DNA from: Pseudomonas nunensis
GTDB taxonomy: Bacteria; Pseudomonadota; Gammaproteobacteria; Pseudomonadales; Pseudomonadaceae
DNA: 64,000 nucleotides
Assembly: GCF_024296925.1 (NCBI RefSeq)
Contig: NZ_CP101125.1
Location: 1,366,501 to 1,430,500 of the forward strand
Direction of reading: 5' to 3'
Shown here one piece after another: positions 51,951 to 59,283 of this stretch (position 1 is the first letter of the stretch; each line of letters begins with the position of its first letter). A program made the position numbers and the translations under genes. The notes beneath the pieces were generated by a model that saw only the letters and a program-made list of their open reading frames with translations, had not been told where the DNA came from and did no database searches.

Positions 51951-52133
51951 AGCTGCGCTCCACCTGAGATTGTTATGCGCGGCCAGAAGGCGCGCTTTTT
52001 TGTATGGGCAGATACGAAAGGATGATGCGGGGTGCGTTGGCGCTCGACGTGGGTCGGCTGCCGCTGTTGTTCGAATCGCCCCTGTATGGACGCAGAGTAG
52101 GGCGAAGAGTAGGATGGGCTCAATGGCCTATTT

Positions 52134-52169
52134 CACTGAAGCGATAACTATTTTCAGTTTCATTCAGTG
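52134..52169. promoter_or_regulatory. candidate IclR operator
   Basis: The inverted repeat CACTGAA (52134-52140) and TTCAGTG (52163-52169) lies between the divergent IclR and ABC ATPase genes; the IclR start is 26 nt away. An internal TTTTCAGTTTC is also present. Confidence 0.4.
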
Positions 52170-52194
52170 AGTAAATTTTTAGTTGAGAAAACCC

Positions 52195-53031
52195 ATGCCT
52201 GATTCCACTGAGCGGAATGAAAACAAAAATGAAGTCGGTGTCGGCGCCGTCTCCCGGTTGTTTGCGGTGCTGCGCAGCCTCGGTGATACGGTCGAGGGCG
52301 GCGAGCGCGTGACGCAACTGGCCCAGCGCATCGGTCTATCGCAACCGACGACCCATCGTTTGCTGCGCAGCCTGATGGACGAGGGCATGGTCGAGCAGGA
52401 CGCGCGCAGCAAACGCTATCGCCTGAGTCTGGATTTCTTCGCCCTGGCGGCGCGTGCCGGCAACACCGGCAATCTTCGCGAACTGGCGCGCCCGGCGTTG
52501 TTGCGGTTGTCGGCTTCGTTGGGGGATTCGTTGTTTCTGCTGGCGCGCAGCGGGTTTGATGCGATCTGTCTGGATCGCAGTGAAGGACCGTTTCCGATCC
52601 GTACTTTTACCGGCGACATTGGCGGGCGCGTGGCGTTGGGTGTGGGGCAGGGCAGTCTGGCGATTTTGGCGTTCCTGCCGCAAGAGGAGCGGGACACGGT
52701 GATTCACTACAACTTGCCGCGGCTCAAGGATTTCCATTTGTATGACGAAGTGTTCCTGCGCTCGGAAGTCGAGAACGTGCGGGCGCTCGGGTATGCCGGG
52801 CGCAATACCGGCGTGTTGCAAGGCATGGCCGGGGTGGCGGTGCCGATTCTGGATCGTGACGGGCGCGCGGTTGCGGCGTTGAGCGTGGCCACTGTGAGTG
52901 ATCGGTTGGGGCCGGATCGCTTGCCGACGGTGGTGGAAATGCTCAAGCGTGAAGCGGCGTTGATCGGGCCGCGGATTAATCCGTTTGATCCTTTACTGCG
53001 GCGGCCTTCGCAGGTATTCGGCCAGAACTGA
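52195..53031 (+). CDS. IclR-family transcriptional regulator
   Basis: The ATG at 52195 is preferred over a TTG 12 nt upstream. The 278-aa protein has the IclR winged helix (VGAVSRLFAVLRSLGDTVEGGERVTQLAQRIGLSQPTTHRLLRSLMDEGMVEQ) and a GAF-like effector domain. It is divergent from the importer/dehydrogenase operon and probably controls it. IclR proteins act as repressors or activators; the effector is unknown. Confidence 0.9.
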   Translation: MPDSTERNENKNEVGVGAVSRLFAVLRSLGDTVEGGERVTQLAQRIGLSQPTTHRLLRSLMDEGMVEQDARSKRYRLSLDFFALAARAGNTGNLRELARPALLRLSASLGDSLFLLARSGFDAICLDRSEGPFPIRTFTGDIGGRVALGVGQGSLAILAFLPQEERDTVIHYNLPRLKDFHLYDEVFLRSEVENVRALGYAGRNTGVLQGMAGVAVPILDRDGRAVAALSVATVSDRLGPDRLPTVVEMLKREAALIGPRINPFDPLLRRPSQVFGQN

Positions 53032-53046
53032 CACCACCCAATCCCC

Positions 53047-53135
53047 TGTGGGAGCGGGCTTGCTCGCGAATGCGGTATGTTAGACACATAGTTGCCGACT
53101 GACACACCGCATTCGCGAGCAAGCCCGCTCCCACA
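53047..53135. repeat. REP pair
   Basis: TGTGGGAGCGGGCTTGCTCGCGAATGCGGT and its inverted partner, about 30 nt apart, between the convergent IclR and anti-sigma genes. Confidence 0.9.
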
Positions 53136-53153
53136 TGGGGATTTGTGTTGTGG

Positions 53154-53906
53154 TCAGAACTGCACGGTTTGCTTGAGCATCCGCGCCGCCGGCGTATCGC
53201 TCGGGCTGACCATCGCGTAGTTGTACCCGGCCCCCGACCAATACTCAGCCTGCAACTCCCCATCACTGCGACTGCCCCGTGGCAACAGGTAGTTCTTTGG
53301 CCCCGGCGGCCGCACATAGAAACTGATCTTGTGCCCGCCCTGATCCTCGTAAACCACCATCGCCGCCGGCCCTTGCTCGGTGCTGAGCAAGCGCCCGCTG
53401 ACCGGTTTGAACCCGGCACTCGCCAGATCCGGCAAGCGATGGGCTTGGGTGAAGTAACGGTCGAGCCAGCCCTGAATGTTGCCGTTGTCGCTGACCTTGT
53501 AGTCCGCCGGCAACATGCCTTGCTGGGCAAACAGCCGGTAGGCCTGCATCGCATCGGCCATCGGCGCCTGGGTGCTGACCAGGGTCATCTCCCGCGCCTG
53601 CCAGCCACTGATCCCGCCAATACCAATCGCGATCAACAACACCGCCGCGCTGGCCAGGTGTCGCCGGGACTGGCGCTTGAGACGCTGGCGAATCAACGCC
53701 GGATCGAGTTCCGGGTTGACCGGTTGCTGCAGCGCACCGCCGAGGGCCGCGCGCAGTTGCTGGGCGTCGTGTTGCCAGGCGCGCACTTGCTCGGAAATCT
53801 CGGCGTTAGTCGCGAGAAAAGTCTCCACCAGACGTCGGTCAGCATCGCTGAGCTGGTGATCGACGTAGGCGTGCAGGTCACGCTCGCTTGGGGGCATGCT
53901 GATCAT
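53154..53906 (-). CDS. anti-sigma factor, transmembrane
   Basis: The 250-aa protein has a cytoplasmic N-terminal domain (SERDLHAYVDHQLSDADRRLVETFLA, the zinc-less anti-sigma domain type), one membrane helix (LASAAVLLIAIGIGGISGW) and a periplasmic C-terminal sensor part. Its start overlaps the sigma factor stop by 4 nt (53903-53906), a typical sigma/anti-sigma arrangement. The periplasmic part would receive the signal. Confidence 0.88.
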   Translation of the reverse strand: MISMPPSERDLHAYVDHQLSDADRRLVETFLATNAEISEQVRAWQHDAQQLRAALGGALQQPVNPELDPALIRQRLKRQSRRHLASAAVLLIAIGIGGISGWQAREMTLVSTQAPMADAMQAYRLFAQQGMLPADYKVSDNGNIQGWLDRYFTQAHRLPDLASAGFKPVSGRLLSTEQGPAAMVVYEDQGGHKISFYVRPPGPKNYLLPRGSRSDGELQAEYWSGAGYNYAMVSPSDTPAARMLKQTVQF

Positions 53907-54409
53907 TTGAGTCTCCGCAGGGAAGGGCGGCTGATTTCGCCGTCGCTGAGTTCGCGCAAGGCCTGGCGGGCGCGGGAAAGGCGGGACATCACGGTGCCAG
54001 TCGGGACGCCGAGAATCTCGGCGACCTCTTTATAGGTCAGGCCTTCCACCGACACCCACAGCAGCAAGGCGCGCTGTTCGGTGTTGAGTTGGTCGAAGGC
54101 TTGCAGGGTGGTTTGGGCAATCACGCTGCGCTCGGCCGAGGGGTGCGCATCGTCGCGGCCGGTGAAAAATTCGAGCATCCGCGCATAGCGCCGGGAGCGC
54201 CGGTGAGCGTCGAGGAACTGCCGATACAGAATCGAAAACAGCCACGCGCGCAGGTCGCCGTCGGGACGTTTGTCGCTCCAACTCGACAGCGCCCGCTCCA
54301 GGCTGGCCTGGACCAGATCGTCGGCGCTGCTGGGGTTGCGCGTCAACGACACCGCGAACCTGCGCAATCTGGGAATGATTTCTCTCAGTTGTTCGTCGAT
54401 ATCGTTCAT
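53903..54409 (-). CDS. ECF-type RNA polymerase sigma factor
   Basis: The start at 54407-54409 (MNDIDEQLREII) leaves a leader after the predicted promoter; the first ATG (54427) would leave only about 10 nt. The 168-aa protein has sigma-70 regions 2 (AVSLTRNPSSADDLVQASLERALSS ... LRAWLFSILYRQFLDAHRR) and 4 (LWVSVEGLTYKEVAEILGVPTGTVMSRLSRARQAL). It is coupled to a downstream anti-sigma gene and divergent from a catalase-like gene, which suggests an oxidative-stress regulon. Confidence 0.9.
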   Translation of the reverse strand: MNDIDEQLREIIPRLRRFAVSLTRNPSSADDLVQASLERALSSWSDKRPDGDLRAWLFSILYRQFLDAHRRSRRYARMLEFFTGRDDAHPSAERSVIAQTTLQAFDQLNTEQRALLLWVSVEGLTYKEVAEILGVPTGTVMSRLSRARQALRELSDGEISRPSLRRLK

Positions 54410-54444
54410 GAAGTTCTGACTAGTCACTACGCTGTGGACTAGGA

Positions 54445-54470
54445 AGACGCCCGGGATTGGAGGTTATTCC
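54445..54470 (-). promoter_or_regulatory. predicted ECF-sigma promoter of the sigma operon
   Basis: On the minus strand GGAATAA (54464-54470) is followed after 14 nt by CGTCT (54445-54449). The same two words at the same spacing occur on the plus strand at 54499-54524, so it is a strong autoregulatory promoter candidate. Confidence 0.75.
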
Positions 54471-54498
54471 ACGTCGATAAAAATAAATACGGCGTGAT

Positions 54499-54524
54499 GG
54501 AATAAACCGGCGCGGGGTGCGTCT
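54499..54524 (+). promoter_or_regulatory. predicted ECF-sigma promoter of the catalase operon
   Basis: GGAATAA (54499-54505), 14-nt spacer, CGTCT (54520-54524), identical in motif and spacing to the divergent promoter. It lies 44 nt before the chosen catalase start. Confidence 0.75.
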
Positions 54525-54567
54525 GCTTGGTTCTTCTCACTTGTGGCCGATGGCCCTGGAGTCTTTC

Positions 54568-55653
54568 ATGGTAGATCGCTCATCACCGCCCACCCGGCCA
54601 CCCTTGAGTGCCGCGAGCCTGACGTTGCGTCTGGCCGGCATCGCCGTGATCGTTGCGGCAGTGGCCGGGGCTTTTGCCTACGTCAACGGCACCTTTGACC
54701 CACAACGCCTGACGCCGAAAAAACTGATCAATGTGCTGGAAACCAACAACGGCGTGCACCCGGGGTTCCGACGCAACCACTCCAAAGGCGTGTGCGTGAT
54801 CGGGCATTTCGAGAGCAGCGGCGAGGCGCGCAGTTATTCCACCGCCCAGGTGTTCAATGAGCCAAAGACTCCGGTAGTCGGACGTTTCGCGCTACCTGCC
54901 GGGAACCCTTACGCGCCGGACAGTGCCGTGCCGATCCGCAGCCTGGCGTTGCGTTTCACCCAGGCCAACGGCCAACAGTGGCGCACCGGGATGAACAGCA
55001 TGCCGGTGTTCCCGGTGGGCACGCCCGAGGCGTTCTATCAGCTGCAACAAGCGCAGTCGCCAGATCCGGCCACGGGCAAACCGAACCCGGCGCTGGTCCC
55101 TGCGTTCTTCGGTTCGCATCCGGAAGCCGGGCCGTTCCTGGCGTGGATCAAAACCGCCAAGCCGTCGGCCAGTTATGTGACGGAAACCTACAACAGCGTC
55201 AACGCGTTTTACCTGGTGAATGCATCCGGGCAGAAGCAAGCGGTGCGTTGGAGCATGGTGCCGGTGGTCAAGGACGCGGCGGGTGCTACGGCGCCTGAAG
55301 GCGCGGATTTCCTCGAAAAAGATTTGGTGCAGCGGATTTCCACAGGACCGTTGCGTTGGCAGTTGAACATCATCCTGGCTAATCCGGGTGATCCGGTGAA
55401 CGACGCGAGCAAGGCCTGGCCCGAGGACCGCAAAGTCTTGAATGCCGGGACCTTGGTGCTCGAAGCGACCCAGCCACAACTGAACGGCGAGTGCCGTGAC
55501 ATCAACTACGATCCGCTGGTGTTGCCGGCCGGGATCGAAGGCTCCGATGACCCGCTGCTCGCCGCGCGTTCCGCCGGGTACGCCAGTTCGTACCTGCGTC
55601 GCACCAGCGAAGTCAATCAGTTGCCCGCCGCCAAACAGGAGGCTCAACAATGA
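54568..55653 (+). CDS. catalase-family peroxidase (SrpA-like)
   Basis: The ATG at 54568 follows GGAG and lies after the predicted start of transcription; longer starts are not possible if that promoter is used. The 361-aa protein has an N-terminal membrane helix (LAGIAVIVAAVAGAFAYVNG) and a short catalase fold (GFRRNHSKGVCVIGHFESSG with the distal His; RSLALRFTQANGQQWRTGMN). Such short forms act as heme peroxidases in the periplasm or at the membrane. It is coupled to a cytochrome b561. Confidence 0.88.
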   Translation: MVDRSSPPTRPPLSAASLTLRLAGIAVIVAAVAGAFAYVNGTFDPQRLTPKKLINVLETNNGVHPGFRRNHSKGVCVIGHFESSGEARSYSTAQVFNEPKTPVVGRFALPAGNPYAPDSAVPIRSLALRFTQANGQQWRTGMNSMPVFPVGTPEAFYQLQQAQSPDPATGKPNPALVPAFFGSHPEAGPFLAWIKTAKPSASYVTETYNSVNAFYLVNASGQKQAVRWSMVPVVKDAAGATAPEGADFLEKDLVQRISTGPLRWQLNIILANPGDPVNDASKAWPEDRKVLNAGTLVLEATQPQLNGECRDINYDPLVLPAGIEGSDDPLLAARSAGYASSYLRRTSEVNQLPAAKQEAQQ

Positions 55654-56195
55654 GCGCCCAACCCAAGCATTTCGTCCCGCTGGCGCGCCTGCTGCACTGG
55701 CTGATGGCACTGATGGTCATCGCGATGCTGTTTATCGGCGCGGGCATGGTGGCCTCGGTGTCCGAGCGGCATGAGTGGCTGATTCATCTGCACAAACCCT
55801 TGGGCATCGCGATTTTGCTGTTGGTGATCGTGCGCCTGGCCGTGCGTTTCTCCACACAGCAACCACCGCTGCCGGCGGACCTGCCGGGTTGGCAGGTGTT
55901 GGCGGCCAAGGCGTCGCATGTCTTGCTGTATGCGCTGATGCTGATTTTGCCGCTGCTCGGTTGGGCAATGATTTCGGCGGCGGGCGACCCGGTAATGCTC
56001 AGCAGTTCGTTGCAGTTGCCGTCGATTGTGCCGGCCAATGCGCAGGTGTTTGCGGTACTGCGCAAGGCGCATGGATACCTGGCGTATCTGTTGTTCCTGA
56101 CGGTGCTGCTGCACCTGGCGGCGGCGTTGTTTCATGGCTGGGTGCGTCGCGATGATGTACTGGACAGCATGTTGCGAGGCAAGGATCGCGATTAA
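55650..56195 (+). CDS. cytochrome b561 family protein
   Basis: The 181-aa protein starts with an ATGA overlap with the catalase stop. Four membrane helices carry heme-ligand His residues (RLLHWLMALMVIAM; LIHLHKPLGIAILL; KASHVLLYALMLI; LLHLAAALFHGW). It probably passes quinol electrons to the periplasmic peroxidase. Confidence 0.88.
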   Translation: MSAQPKHFVPLARLLHWLMALMVIAMLFIGAGMVASVSERHEWLIHLHKPLGIAILLLVIVRLAVRFSTQQPPLPADLPGWQVLAAKASHVLLYALMLILPLLGWAMISAAGDPVMLSSSLQLPSIVPANAQVFAVLRKAHGYLAYLLFLTVLLHLAAALFHGWVRRDDVLDSMLRGKDRD

Positions 56196-56213
56196 TCATC
56201 CCCCGATGATCCC

Positions 56214-56365
56214 CTGTAGCAGCTGACGAGCACCGCGAGGCAGCGTTCGGCGGCGAAGCCGTCGTAAAGTCAGCCACCGCGGTGTTTCAGGTTATACCGC
56301 GGCGGCAGGATTCACGACGGCTGCGCCGCCGAACGCTGCCTCGCGGTGCTCGTCAGCTGCTACAG
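56214..56365. repeat. large REP pair; right arm supplies the end of the MFS gene
   Basis: CTGTAGCAGCTGACGAGCACC at the left and its complement at the right, with the CGTTCGGCGGCGAAGCCGTCGT core; each arm is over 50 bp. The stop codon and last codons of the MFS gene (56353-56365) lie in the right arm. Confidence 0.92.
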
Positions 56366-57552
56366 GTTTCCAGCGGTTGGATTTTGGCGGGCAGGGTTTG
56401 CCACCAATAGATCAGCGCCACGGCGTTGATCCCTGCCCCCAACAAGCACACGCCCATCCACCCACCCCACGCATACATCGCCGTCGAACCAATCGACCCC
56501 AGCGCACTGCCAATTGAATAAAACAGCATGTACCCCGCAGTCAGTCTGCTTTGCGCTTCCGGCCGCACGCTGTAGATCATGCTCTGGCTGGTGACGTGCA
56601 CGGCTTGCAGGCCCAAATCCAGCGTGATCACCCCAAGCAACAACGCCCACAGCGAAGATTGAGTGAGGGCGATCGGCAGCCACGAAGCCAGCATCAGCAA
56701 CAGCGACAGGCCGCTGGTCCATTGGCCAAGACCACGATCGGCCAGATGCCCGGCGCGGGCGGCGGCCAGTGCACCAGCCGCGCCGGCCAGTCCGAATAAT
56801 CCGATTTGCGTGTGGGACAACGACAGCGGCGGGGCGCTCAGGGGCAACACCATCGGTGTCCACAACACCATGGCGCTGGCGAAGGTCAGCAGGGCCAGGA
56901 TCGCCCGTTGGCGCAGCACCGGTTCTTCCTTGAACAGGCTGAATACCGAGCCGATCAGCGCGGCGTAAGTGTGGGTTGGTTGCGGGGCTTCGTGTTTGGG
57001 CAGCACACGAAACAACAGCAACGCCATCAACAGGGTCAAGCCTGCGGACAACAGATAAATCGAACGCCAACCGGCCAGGTCCGCCATGCCGCCGGCCACG
57101 GTGCGCGCCAGCAAAATGCCGACAACGATGCCGCTGGTGACCACGCCCACCACGCGTCCGCGCTGGGCTGAAATCGCCAGGGTCGCCGCGTACGCCACCA
57201 ACACCTGGGTCACCACCGCCAACAATCCGGTCAACGCCATGCCGATCAGCAGCCAGGCGCTGTTTTGCGCGAAGGCGATCATCAGCAACGCCACTGCCGA
57301 CAACAGCGTTTGCGTGACGATCAGGCGCCGCCGGTTGATCAGATCCCCCAGCGGCACCAGCAATAACAGGCCCACGCCGTAACCGACCTGAGTCAGGGTG
57401 ACGACGATGCCGATGGTCGCCGGGTTCATGGCAAACGCGTCGGCCATGGCATCGAGCAGCGGTTGGGCGTAATACACGTTACCGACGGCCAGTCCGCAGG
57501 CAACAGCGAACAGCAGCACCACGCCGCTGTTCAACGAATGATTGGGCTTCAT
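56353..57552 (-). CDS. MFS transporter, drug/solute exporter type
   Basis: The ATG at 57550-57552 follows AGGAG; a longer frame adds 8 residues without support. The 399-aa protein has about 12 membrane segments, with VPLGDLINRRRLIVTQTLLSAV in the first cytoplasmic loop. It is divergent from an HxlR regulator with a perfect operator between them, so it is likely a regulated efflux pump. The last few residues (TCSS) come from a REP arm. Confidence 0.85.
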   Translation of the reverse strand: MKPNHSLNSGVVLLFAVACGLAVGNVYYAQPLLDAMADAFAMNPATIGIVVTLTQVGYGVGLLLLVPLGDLINRRRLIVTQTLLSAVALLMIAFAQNSAWLLIGMALTGLLAVVTQVLVAYAATLAISAQRGRVVGVVTSGIVVGILLARTVAGGMADLAGWRSIYLLSAGLTLLMALLLFRVLPKHEAPQPTHTYAALIGSVFSLFKEEPVLRQRAILALLTFASAMVLWTPMVLPLSAPPLSLSHTQIGLFGLAGAAGALAAARAGHLADRGLGQWTSGLSLLLMLASWLPIALTQSSLWALLLGVITLDLGLQAVHVTSQSMIYSVRPEAQSRLTAGYMLFYSIGSALGSIGSTAMYAWGGWMGVCLLGAGINAVALIYWWQTLPAKIQPLETCSS

Positions 57553-57577
57553 GCCAGGCTCCTGATGTGGTTTCAAA

Positions 57578-57613
57578 ATAAAACCAGTTGTACGGTAAGC
57601 AGGCTGGTTTTAT
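57578..57613. promoter_or_regulatory. candidate HxlR operator
   Basis: ATAAAACCAG (57578-57587) and CTGGTTTTAT (57604-57613) are perfect 10-bp inverted arms with a 16-nt spacer, in the 95-nt region between the divergent MFS and hxlR genes. Confidence 0.65.
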
Positions 57614-57647
57614 ATTGCAACCACATTTGCAGTCTGCGAGCACGAGC

Positions 57648-58094
57648 ATGGTCAAACGAACAAGCATGCAAGGCGCCGAATGCCCGGTCGCCCGGTCACT
57701 GGATGCCATTGGTGATTGGTGGTCATTGCTGATCGTGCGCGATGCCTTCGATGGCATCCGCCGATTCGGTGAGTTTCAGCGCAATTTGGGCATGGCCAAG
57801 AACATCCTCTCGGCGCGCCTACGCACGTTGGTGGCCCATGGGATTTTTGATCTGGTGCCGGCGTCGGATGGCAGCGCGTATCAGGAGTACGTGCTGACGG
57901 AAAAGGGCAAAGGCCTGTTCCCGTTGATCATCGGCTTGCGGCAGTGGGGCGAGGCGTTTTTCTTTGAGGCCGGGGAGGCGCATTCGCGGGTGGTGGATCG
58001 TGAACAGGGGCGACCGGTGCGCACGTTGGAATTGCGCGCCGAGGATGGGCGATTGCTGGGGCCGGAGGATTGTGTGCGGGTGGCGGCGGAATGA
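57648..58094 (+). CDS. HxlR-family transcriptional regulator
   Basis: The ATG at 57648 (MVKRTSMQGAECPVARSLDAIGDWWSLLIVRDAF) gives 148 aa; an ATG 18 nt later is also possible. The winged helix segment (GIRRFGEFQRNLGMAKNILSARLRTLVAHGIF) and the conserved CPV cysteine are present. It is divergent from the MFS gene and probably represses it. Confidence 0.9.
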   Translation: MVKRTSMQGAECPVARSLDAIGDWWSLLIVRDAFDGIRRFGEFQRNLGMAKNILSARLRTLVAHGIFDLVPASDGSAYQEYVLTEKGKGLFPLIIGLRQWGEAFFFEAGEAHSRVVDREQGRPVRTLELRAEDGRLLGPEDCVRVAAE

Positions 58095-58095
58095 A

Positions 58096-58124
58096 CGTGG
58101 CTGCATGCCGGGCATGCAGCCACG
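58096..58124. terminator. hairpin between hxlR and the carboxypeptidase gene
   Basis: CGTGGCTGCATGCC and GGCATGCAGCCACG form a 14-bp perfect palindrome with one central base, between convergent genes. No T run is seen. Confidence 0.65.
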
Positions 58125-58131
58125 AAGTCAA

Positions 58132-59283
58132 TTAACGCAACGTATCAATCATCTCCGCAACAGTCGTCAGCACATCTTTCCCCAACTGCTTGGAGCGTTT
58201 GCCCGACCAACCCGTCAACGCATTCGGTGCGTCGTCGTTATCTTTGAACGGCATCTCCAGGGTCAGCGACAGGCAGTCGAACTTCTGACCGACGCTGTTA
58301 CAGGCCAGGGTCATGTTGGCTTTGCCCGGTAAGTCACGGGTGTAGCCGTGTTTGGTCTGGAAGTCTTTGGTCAGATGCTTGAGGTGATCGCGGAAGTGGG
58401 TTTCGAGCTTCTCGATCCGCGGCGTATAACCGGGGTTGCCTTCACAACCGGCAGTGAACACGTAAGGGATTTCTTCGTCACCGTGTACGTCGAGGAACAG
58501 GTCGACGCCGTACTTTTCCATCTGCTGCTGAGCAAACAGGACTTCCGGGCTGATCTCCTGGCTGGCGCTCTGCCAGGCGCGGTTCAGGTCCTGGCCCATG
58601 GCGTTGGTACGCAGATGGCCGTGGAAGGCGCCGTCCGGGTTCATGTTCGGTATCAGGTACAGGTCGGCGCTGGCCAGGAGTTTTTTCAGTACGGGATCGT
58701 CATGCTTTTCCAGGCGTTCGATCACGCCTTCCATGAACCACTCGGCCATGTGCTCGCCCGGATGCTGTTGCGCGATGATCCAGACCTTGCGCTGACCTTC
58801 GGCGCCGCTGCCTTTGCGCAGCAACTGGATATCCCGGCCTTCGGCGCTTTTGCCAGTGGCCAGCAGTTCAGTGCCGGCCTTGCTCAGCGCCTGTTCGATC
58901 AGCCAGTCATGGCGACCGCGGCTGTAGGGTTCGAAGTAGGCAAACCAGGCGTGCGTGGCCGTAGCTTCGAGGCTGAAGCGCAGGCAGTCGCCTTCGAAAA
59001 TGGTCGGTACGCGGAACCAGTTGACGTGGTCGTAGGACGCCACCGCCTGATAACCATCCCAGGCTTTGTTGTACGAGGATTTACTGGCGTTGTTCAGGCG
59101 AAACCAATGCTCTTGACCGACATGCAGACCGCTGGCCTTGAAGTGGAACCACTGGAAATGCTGGCTGCGCGTGTCTGGCTTGATTGCTAAAAGCGCTTGC
59201 AGAGGGTTGCTGATGTCCAGTACTTCAATGTTGCCGCTGTCGAAGTTGGCAGTGATGTCGAAAGAGGATTTAGCCACGGTCAT
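58132..59283 (-). CDS. M14-family cytosolic carboxypeptidase
   Basis: The 383-aa protein has an N-terminal beta-sandwich typical of CCP/Nna1-like enzymes and a zinc carboxypeptidase domain: H174-x-x-E177 (QHPGEHMAEW), H267 (FLDVHGDEE) and the catalytic Glu about residue 343 (TLEMPFKDND). No signal peptide is seen. Bacterial members resemble the deglutamylating carboxypeptidases of eukaryotes; the natural substrate is not known from sequence. Confidence 0.9.
   Translation of the reverse strand: MTVAKSSFDITANFDSGNIEVLDISNPLQALLAIKPDTRSQHFQWFHFKASGLHVGQEHWFRLNNASKSSYNKAWDGYQAVASYDHVNWFRVPTIFEGDCLRFSLEATATHAWFAYFEPYSRGRHDWLIEQALSKAGTELLATGKSAEGRDIQLLRKGSGAEGQRKVWIIAQQHPGEHMAEWFMEGVIERLEKHDDPVLKKLLASADLYLIPNMNPDGAFHGHLRTNAMGQDLNRAWQSASQEISPEVLFAQQQMEKYGVDLFLDVHGDEEIPYVFTAGCEGNPGYTPRIEKLETHFRDHLKHLTKDFQTKHGYTRDLPGKANMTLACNSVGQKFDCLSLTLEMPFKDNDDAPNALTGWSGKRSKQLGKDVLTTVAEMIDTLR

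What the first reader, a model, noticed from the sequence alone, without database searches (positions are those of the whole stretch)
54445..54524. Divergent ECF-sigma promoters with identical words and spacing
The sigma/anti-sigma operon (minus) and the catalase/cytochrome b561 operon (plus) each have GGAATAA, 14 nt, CGTCT in front. Two independent occurrences in opposite orientation within 80 bp, each properly placed, strongly suggest the recognition sequence of this ECF sigma factor and a regulon that includes the peroxidase and its electron donor. It also fixes the start codons of both operons.
Basis: partly seen in the sequence, partly recalled or inferred. Interest (0 to 1): 0.72.

Follow-up and report, generated by a model that had tools for sequence, protein, structure and literature searches.

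The report
Twin promoters of one sigma factor
Two matching start signals probably let one bacterial stress regulator switch on both its own gene and a neighbouring peroxide-handling enzyme; the same wiring recurs in related bacteria and belongs to a known type of switch.

Summary
In 50 Pseudomonas loci examined, a site with at most 1 mismatch lies upstream of the sigma gene in 49 of 50 and of the catalase in 41 of 44; shuffles give 2-6 mismatches. The pair recurs in Burkholderia, Achromobacter, Bordetella and Luteimonas. The sites act like separate promoters: both persist when 3-4 kb lies between them or the catalase is on another contig, and one site suffices where the genes form one operon. 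Exact hits occur in 89 of 108 genomes with the sigma gene and 7 of 41 without. The kind is known: published ECF26 consensus GGAATA/GT, and S. meliloti rpoE4 has GGAATAA-N15-CGTCT; in B. cenocepacia the homologous divergent sigma and catalase genes rise together after H2O2. Added here: the promoter, range and minimal regulon of this PrtI-like Pseudomonas system, and further targets in other lineages. No expression data exist for this organism in what I saw.

The parts
54464..54470 (-). -35 element GGAATAA of the sigma/anti-sigma operon
   Evidence: exact; site with at most 1 mismatch upstream of the sigma gene in 49 of 50 Pseudomonas loci
54445..54449 (-). -10 element CGTCT of the sigma/anti-sigma operon, 14 nt from the -35
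54499..54505 (+). -35 element GGAATAA of the catalase/cytochrome b561 operon
   Evidence: exact; site with at most 1 mismatch upstream of the catalase in 41 of 44 Pseudomonas loci
54520..54524 (+). -10 element CGTCT of the catalase/cytochrome b561 operon, 14 nt from the -35
54479..54490 (.). A-rich block AAAAATAAATAC between the two -35 elements, possibly a shared upstream element
   Evidence: commonest base in 20-26 of 26 rows per column, 25-26 in nearly all (rows chosen for having both sites)
53903..54409 (-). ECF sigma factor gene (sigma-70 regions 2 and 4), 168 aa, ATG start
   Evidence: Pfam and NCBIfam; ATG in 30 of 30 loci at this position
53154..53906 (-). anti-sigma factor gene, 250 aa, overlaps the sigma stop codon; one hydrophobic segment, no cysteine
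   Evidence: weak NCBIfam anti-sigma match, 30.2 bits against a cut-off of 100, no Pfam match; cysteine count read from the sequence
54556..54561 (+). CTGGAG ribosome-binding site of the catalase gene
   Evidence: TGGAG present in 29 of 29 loci shown
54568..55653 (+). catalase-family peroxidase gene, 361 aa, N-terminal hydrophobic stretch
   Evidence: PF00199; closest solved chain by sequence 3e4w, 320 aa; ATG in 29 of 29 loci
55650..56195 (+). cytochrome b561 gene, 181 aa, overlaps the catalase stop codon
   Evidence: PF01292

Best explanation
The two sites are the -35 and -10 elements of two back-to-back promoters read by RNA polymerase carrying the ECF sigma factor encoded beside them (53903-54409; PrtI-like, ECF26-like). 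At rest the co-transcribed membrane anti-sigma factor (53154-53906) holds the sigma factor. An oxidative signal sensed outside the cytoplasm releases it, and the holoenzyme then starts leftwards near 54437 (autoactivation of sigma and anti-sigma) and rightwards near 54532 (catalase-family peroxidase and cytochrome b561). The b561 probably passes quinol electrons to the exported peroxidase. Shown here by sequence: the sites, their conservation, the association of the motif with presence of the sigma gene, the independence of the two sites, and the gene content. Inferred: recognition by this sigma factor, the start points, the signal, release of the sigma factor, export of the peroxidase, and the electron route.
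For: Exact sites, unique in the genome. At most 1 mismatch in 49 of 50 (sigma side) and 41 of 44 (catalase side) Pseudomonas loci, against 2-6 in shuffles. 44 of 46 and 45 of 46 named loci, mostly Burkholderia. Exact hits in 89 of 108 sigma-bearing and 7 of 41 sigma-lacking genomes, the latter with 9 hits against 10 control hits. Close catalase in 104 of 108 against 0 of 41. 0 of 31 catalase loci (30 distinct places) without a sigma match in range have a strict site. Sites persist when the genes are separated. Published ECF26 consensus and the rpoE4 promoter agree. B. cenocepacia BCAL3477/BCAL3478 are divergent and co-induced by H2O2. No sigma-70-type promoter-like site in 54300-54700.
Against: No transcription data for this organism. 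L150 has a 45% identical sigma gene beside a catalase but no strict site; seven sigma loci at 39-47% identity without a catalase (L102-L108) have none; L146 has a site before a catalase with only a sigma fragment match in range. Motif identity alone could arise in 1243 of 20000 shuffles. In B. cenocepacia the authors read the catalase response as indirect, and hypochlorite had no significant effect on either gene. ECF26 membership was not tested with a classifier.
Confidence: 0.9

Rival explanations
1. The pair is one symmetric operator for a DNA-binding repressor or activator, centred on the A-rich block, and not two promoters.
For: The two sites are inverted and 54 bp apart (start to start) in 26 of 36 loci that have both strict sites, and the A-rich centre is conserved in those rows.
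Against: The offset is 34, 55, 60, 63, 69 or 72 bp in the other 10; each site survives alone when 3-4 kb intervenes (7 loci) or the catalase is on another contig; one-operon arrangements have one site in front.
Confidence: 0.04
2. The sites are ECF promoters but are read mainly by another ECF sigma factor of the cell, with cross-talk.
For: Cross-activation within ECF26 is published for S. meliloti; other sigma-like candidates were seen in the first look at this genome.
Against: Exact hits fall to background in genomes lacking this sigma gene, and the site lies at this sigma gene in nearly all loci examined.
Confidence: 0.04
3. The identical words are a coincidence of a short intergenic region.
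For: Some inverted 7+5 pair of free choice appears in 1243 of 20000 shuffles.
Against: Conservation across Pseudomonas and beyond while spacers diverge.
Confidence: 0.01

Closest known systems
Sinorhizobium meliloti ECF26 sigma factors RpoE1, RpoE4 and RpoE6 with EcfR anti-sigma factors (PMC6180224, PMC3511301; passages and one section seen)
   Same: Sigma gene followed by a membrane anti-sigma gene; autoregulation (RpoE1, RpoE4); small regulon; consensus GGAATA/GT; rpoE4 promoter GGAATAA-N15-CGTCT
   Different: Targets are sulfite oxidation and other genes, not a catalase/b561 operon; spacer 15 rather than 14 at rpoE4; signal is sulfite for RpoE1/RpoE4
Burkholderia cenocepacia BCAL3478 (EcfB, PrtI-like) with divergent catalase gene BCAL3477 (PMC2194791, PMC2830190; passages seen)
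   Same: Divergent sigma and catalase genes, co-induced by H2O2; in B. cenocepacia NCTC13227 the homologous locus L173 carries both sites
   Different: Sigma 62% and catalase 61% identical to the window's; -10 word CGTCC; the locus I read is another strain, so its identity with BCAL3477/3478 is inferred; a further site lies before a small lipoprotein gene
PrtI/PrtR of Pseudomonas fluorescens (PMC2997014, PMC8067088, PMC11358695; passages seen)
   Same: ECF sigma gene followed by a transmembrane anti-sigma gene; part of the ECF set common to four P. fluorescens genomes; the Burkholderia homologue is called PrtI-like
   Different: Known for protease and germination-arrest-factor phenotypes; identity with the window's pair is likely but untested, as no PrtI sequence was at hand

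Membership tests
ECF sigma factor | Sigma-70 regions 2 and 4 only, short protein | tested here: met
   168 aa; PF04542 and PF08281/PF04545 matches above cut-off
ECF group ECF26 | Target promoters with -35 GGAATA and -10 GT | tested here: met
   GGAATAA-N14-CGTCT, conserved, against the consensus quoted in PMC6180224
ECF group ECF26 | Co-transcribed anti-sigma with N-terminal anti-sigma domain, one membrane segment and extracytoplasmic C-terminal domain | tested here: inconclusive
   Gene overlaps the sigma stop and shows one hydrophobic segment by eye; NCBIfam anti-sigma match is below cut-off and Pfam has none
ECF group ECF26 | Placement by a group profile or sigma phylogeny | not tested
   No ECF classifier was at hand and no tree was built
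ECF11 (RpoE/ChrR) | Zinc-binding (ZAS) anti-sigma factor, as described | tested here: not met
   The window's anti-sigma has no cysteine; of 122 homologous loci 70 have none and 52 have one (not deduplicated)
PrtI/PrtR | Sequence identity with PrtI/PrtR of P. fluorescens LS107d2 | not tested
   No PrtI or PrtR sequence was available; link rests on names
Catalase-family peroxidase | Catalase core, shorter than classical catalases | tested here: met
   361 aa, PF00199 at 102.2 bits against cut-off 25; best solved match 3e4w, 320 aa

The most novel reading that the evidence does not exclude
The PrtI/PrtR-type pair, known for effects on proteases and a herbicidal toxin, is at heart an old peroxide-defence switch of the cell envelope with a dedicated core regulon: itself plus an exported peroxidase/b561 operon. 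Lineages re-wire it by placing the same promoter before other exported proteins (an alpha/beta hydrolase, a DUF305-like protein, a lipoprotein). Its cysteine-poor anti-sigma senses oxidation by a route other than the zinc/cysteine switch, perhaps through Met116, kept in 110 of 111 aligned rows.
Probability: 0.3. Interest if true: 0.6.

Novelty: new member of a known kind. Interest (0 to 1): 0.4.

Why it matters
It gives a testable promoter and core regulon to a Pseudomonas sigma/anti-sigma pair for which I found no published direct target, links an exported catalase-family peroxidase and a cytochrome b561 to a dedicated stress switch, and offers natural variants (separated, merged, re-targeted) that show how a small ECF regulon gains and loses genes.

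Tried and rejected
Larger regulon in this genome: 80 sites with up to 2 mismatches against 61 for the reversed control pattern. Four other sites have 1 mismatch: three overlap long ORFs; one (GGAAAAA, L056) lies between ORFs ahead of a gene that I recall as KaiC-like; none was taken as convincing. GGAATA-N15/16-CGTC gives 19 hits against 12 control hits; besides the two known sites, 16 of 17 lie inside frames of 250 aa or more, including the only other one with GGAATAA (L283); L284 (GGAATAC) does not.

ECF11 or ECF18 identity, my first guess from PMC3597554 (abstract, one section and passages seen): set aside, since the P. syringae ecf11 and ecf18 genes have other neighbours and the anti-sigma here lacks cysteines. 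A second, 36-37% identical ECF gene with its own anti-sigma and catalase gene in three genomes (L094-L096) shows no such motif. Rfam at gathering thresholds: nothing in 52000-58500. No structure prediction or fold search was run, and no tree was built.

Literature searches that listed no report of this promoter in Pseudomonas or of PrtI acting on the catalase operon: (open-licence PMC papers only; listings and passages, no whole paper read; Okrent 2014, recalled, is not held). Published ECF26 papers found that way were used above.

Its odds were 0.01 for chance; the others had not been filed.

Full report
Observation. GGAATAA-N14-CGTCT occurs exactly at 54445-54470 (-) and 54499-54524 (+) and nowhere else with that spacing in the 7,328,926-base genome. 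The first faces an ECF sigma gene (53903-54409) and an overlapping anti-sigma gene (53154-53906). The second faces a catalase-family gene (54568-55653) and an overlapping cytochrome b561 gene (55650-56195). Identity of the words alone is weak evidence: 1243 of 20000 shuffles of the 158-bp region hold some inverted 7+5 pair when words and spacer are free. An ECF-like GGAA-N17..19-CGT on both strands is rarer, 11 of 20000.

Conservation in Pseudomonas. Of 149 genomes drawn from the genus, 108 have the sigma gene at E of 1e-20 or less (112 matches). I examined 50 loci: the 30 best matches plus 20 that I chose for diversity. Without requiring the motif, the best N14 site within 260 nt upstream has 0 or 1 mismatch to the 12 specified bases in 49 of 50 on the sigma side (the exception, L051, is a 42% identical sigma factor) and in 41 of 44 on the catalase side; shuffles give 2 to 6. 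The three others on the catalase side are L029 (2 mismatches), L035 (a spacer of 15) and L053 (its site, seen, runs into the aligned catalase start). Spacers and surroundings vary. The 26 rows of the column profile were chosen for having both sites, so their invariant word columns prove nothing.

Beyond the genus. Many of these loci are close relatives of one another. Of the 32 remaining loci of that search (L218-L249, sigma 32-41% identical to the window's, no catalase), one has a site with 1 mismatch and the rest have 3 or more. In the unnamed loci outside the genus, 13 of 14 distinct places where a full-length sigma match of 44% or more lies near the catalase have a strict site; the exception is L150. 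Of 8 places with a weaker or partial sigma match, none has one (L115, which L166 re-reads, L133, L145, L148, L152, L154, L156, L157); L146, with a sigma fragment match, has one. Sigma loci without catalase (L102-L108, 39-47%): 0 of 7.

Association with the sigma gene. Exact hits are found in 89 of 108 sigma-bearing genomes (155 hits, 16 control hits) and in 7 of 41 others (9 hits, 10 control hits). A close catalase (E of 1e-100 or less) is in 104 of 108 and 0 of 41. Outside the genus, 31 catalase loci (30 distinct places) with no sigma match within the fetched flanks of about 1.5 kb have no strict site; a sigma gene further away is not excluded.

Two independent promoters. Among loci with both strict sites near each other, the start-to-start offset is 54 bp in 26 of 36 and 34, 55, 60, 63, 69 or 72 bp in the other 10 (which prints offsets one base smaller because it uses the 25-nt form). 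In seven loci (L083-L089) 3-4 kb of other sequence separates the two sites, and in G145 the catalase lies on another contig than the sigma gene; each gene keeps its own site. In three Pantoea/Duffyella plasmids catalase, cytochrome b, sigma and anti-sigma genes run as one operon with one site about 60 nt ahead. In L169 and L170 the sigma gene comes first, again with a site ahead, plus another strict site pointing the other way. A Gluconobacter plasmid has the divergent pair with spacers of 15. A single symmetric operator does not explain these.

Start codons. ATG at 54409 (30 of 30) and at 54568 (29 of 29, each with TGGAG ahead) is conserved. The ORF start at 54517 lies ahead of the expected transcription start. 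The expected starts, 54437 (-) and 54532 (+), are inferred from the printed S. meliloti rpoE4 promoter, taking its last base as the start.

What it is. The words match the published ECF26 consensus and the rpoE4 promoter, which has one more spacer base (PMC6180224, passages and one section). In B. cenocepacia the sigma gene BCAL3478, called PrtI-like (PMC2194791, passage), and the divergent catalase gene BCAL3477 have highly similar expression patterns; by qPCR they reach 16.6- and 23.1-fold after 60 min of H2O2, with no significant change in the hypochlorite microarray (PMC2830190, passages). Its authors suggest that the catalase is triggered indirectly. So the kind of switch is known. What is added is the promoter, its range and its minimal regulon for this Pseudomonas system; I found no such report in the searches named under Tried and rejected.

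Regulon. In this genome I found no third convincing site. Elsewhere there are further candidate targets: an exported alpha/beta hydrolase with a site about 90-120 nt upstream in 5 of the 7 genomes, of 149, that encode it, the own genome not being one of them; a small lipoprotein gene in the 3 Burkholderia genomes among 9 genomes searched; and a DUF305-like gene in two genomes (L090, L091) that keep the sigma gene but lack the close catalase (hydrolase, lipoprotein and DUF305 labels are my reading of the sequence, not from a family search).

Mechanism. Release of the sigma factor by an oxidative signal is inferred. The anti-sigma has no cysteine; of 122 homologous loci, not deduplicated, 70 have none and 52 have one, while Met116 is kept in 110 of 111 aligned rows, the window's included. 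That suggests, but does not show, a thiol-independent sensor. Electron delivery by cytochrome b561 is inferred from operon membership.

Noticed in passing
54479-54490: A-rich block AAAAATAAATAC midway between the two -35 elements, conserved in Pseudomonas loci with the 54-bp arrangement; perhaps a shared upstream element or another regulator's site.
   Followed up: partly
L273-L277 (also L092, L093): Exported alpha/beta hydrolase gene with the same motif about 90-120 nt upstream in 5 of 7 Pseudomonas genomes that encode it; a probable unlinked target.
   Followed up: partly
L250, L269, L270: The motif lies before a small glycine-rich lipoprotein gene away from the sigma locus in three Burkholderia genomes.
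   Followed up: partly
L090, L091: Two Pseudomonas genomes without the close catalase keep the sigma promoter and have a second site 3.6-4 kb away before a DUF305-like gene.
   Followed up: partly
L037: Beside an intact sigma promoter, the catalase operon seems reduced to remnants of catalase and cytochrome b561 sequence (read by eye).
   Followed up: no
L094, L095, L096: A second, distant ECF sigma gene divergent from an anti-sigma and catalase-family gene pair, without this motif.
   Followed up: partly
53046-53130 and 56216-56365: Inverted repeats flank the two operons, read by eye; they look like REP-type elements or terminators.
   Followed up: no
L012: The sigma start and its promoter lie about 158 bp further apart than in close relatives, as if a short element had been inserted in the leader.
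   Followed up: no
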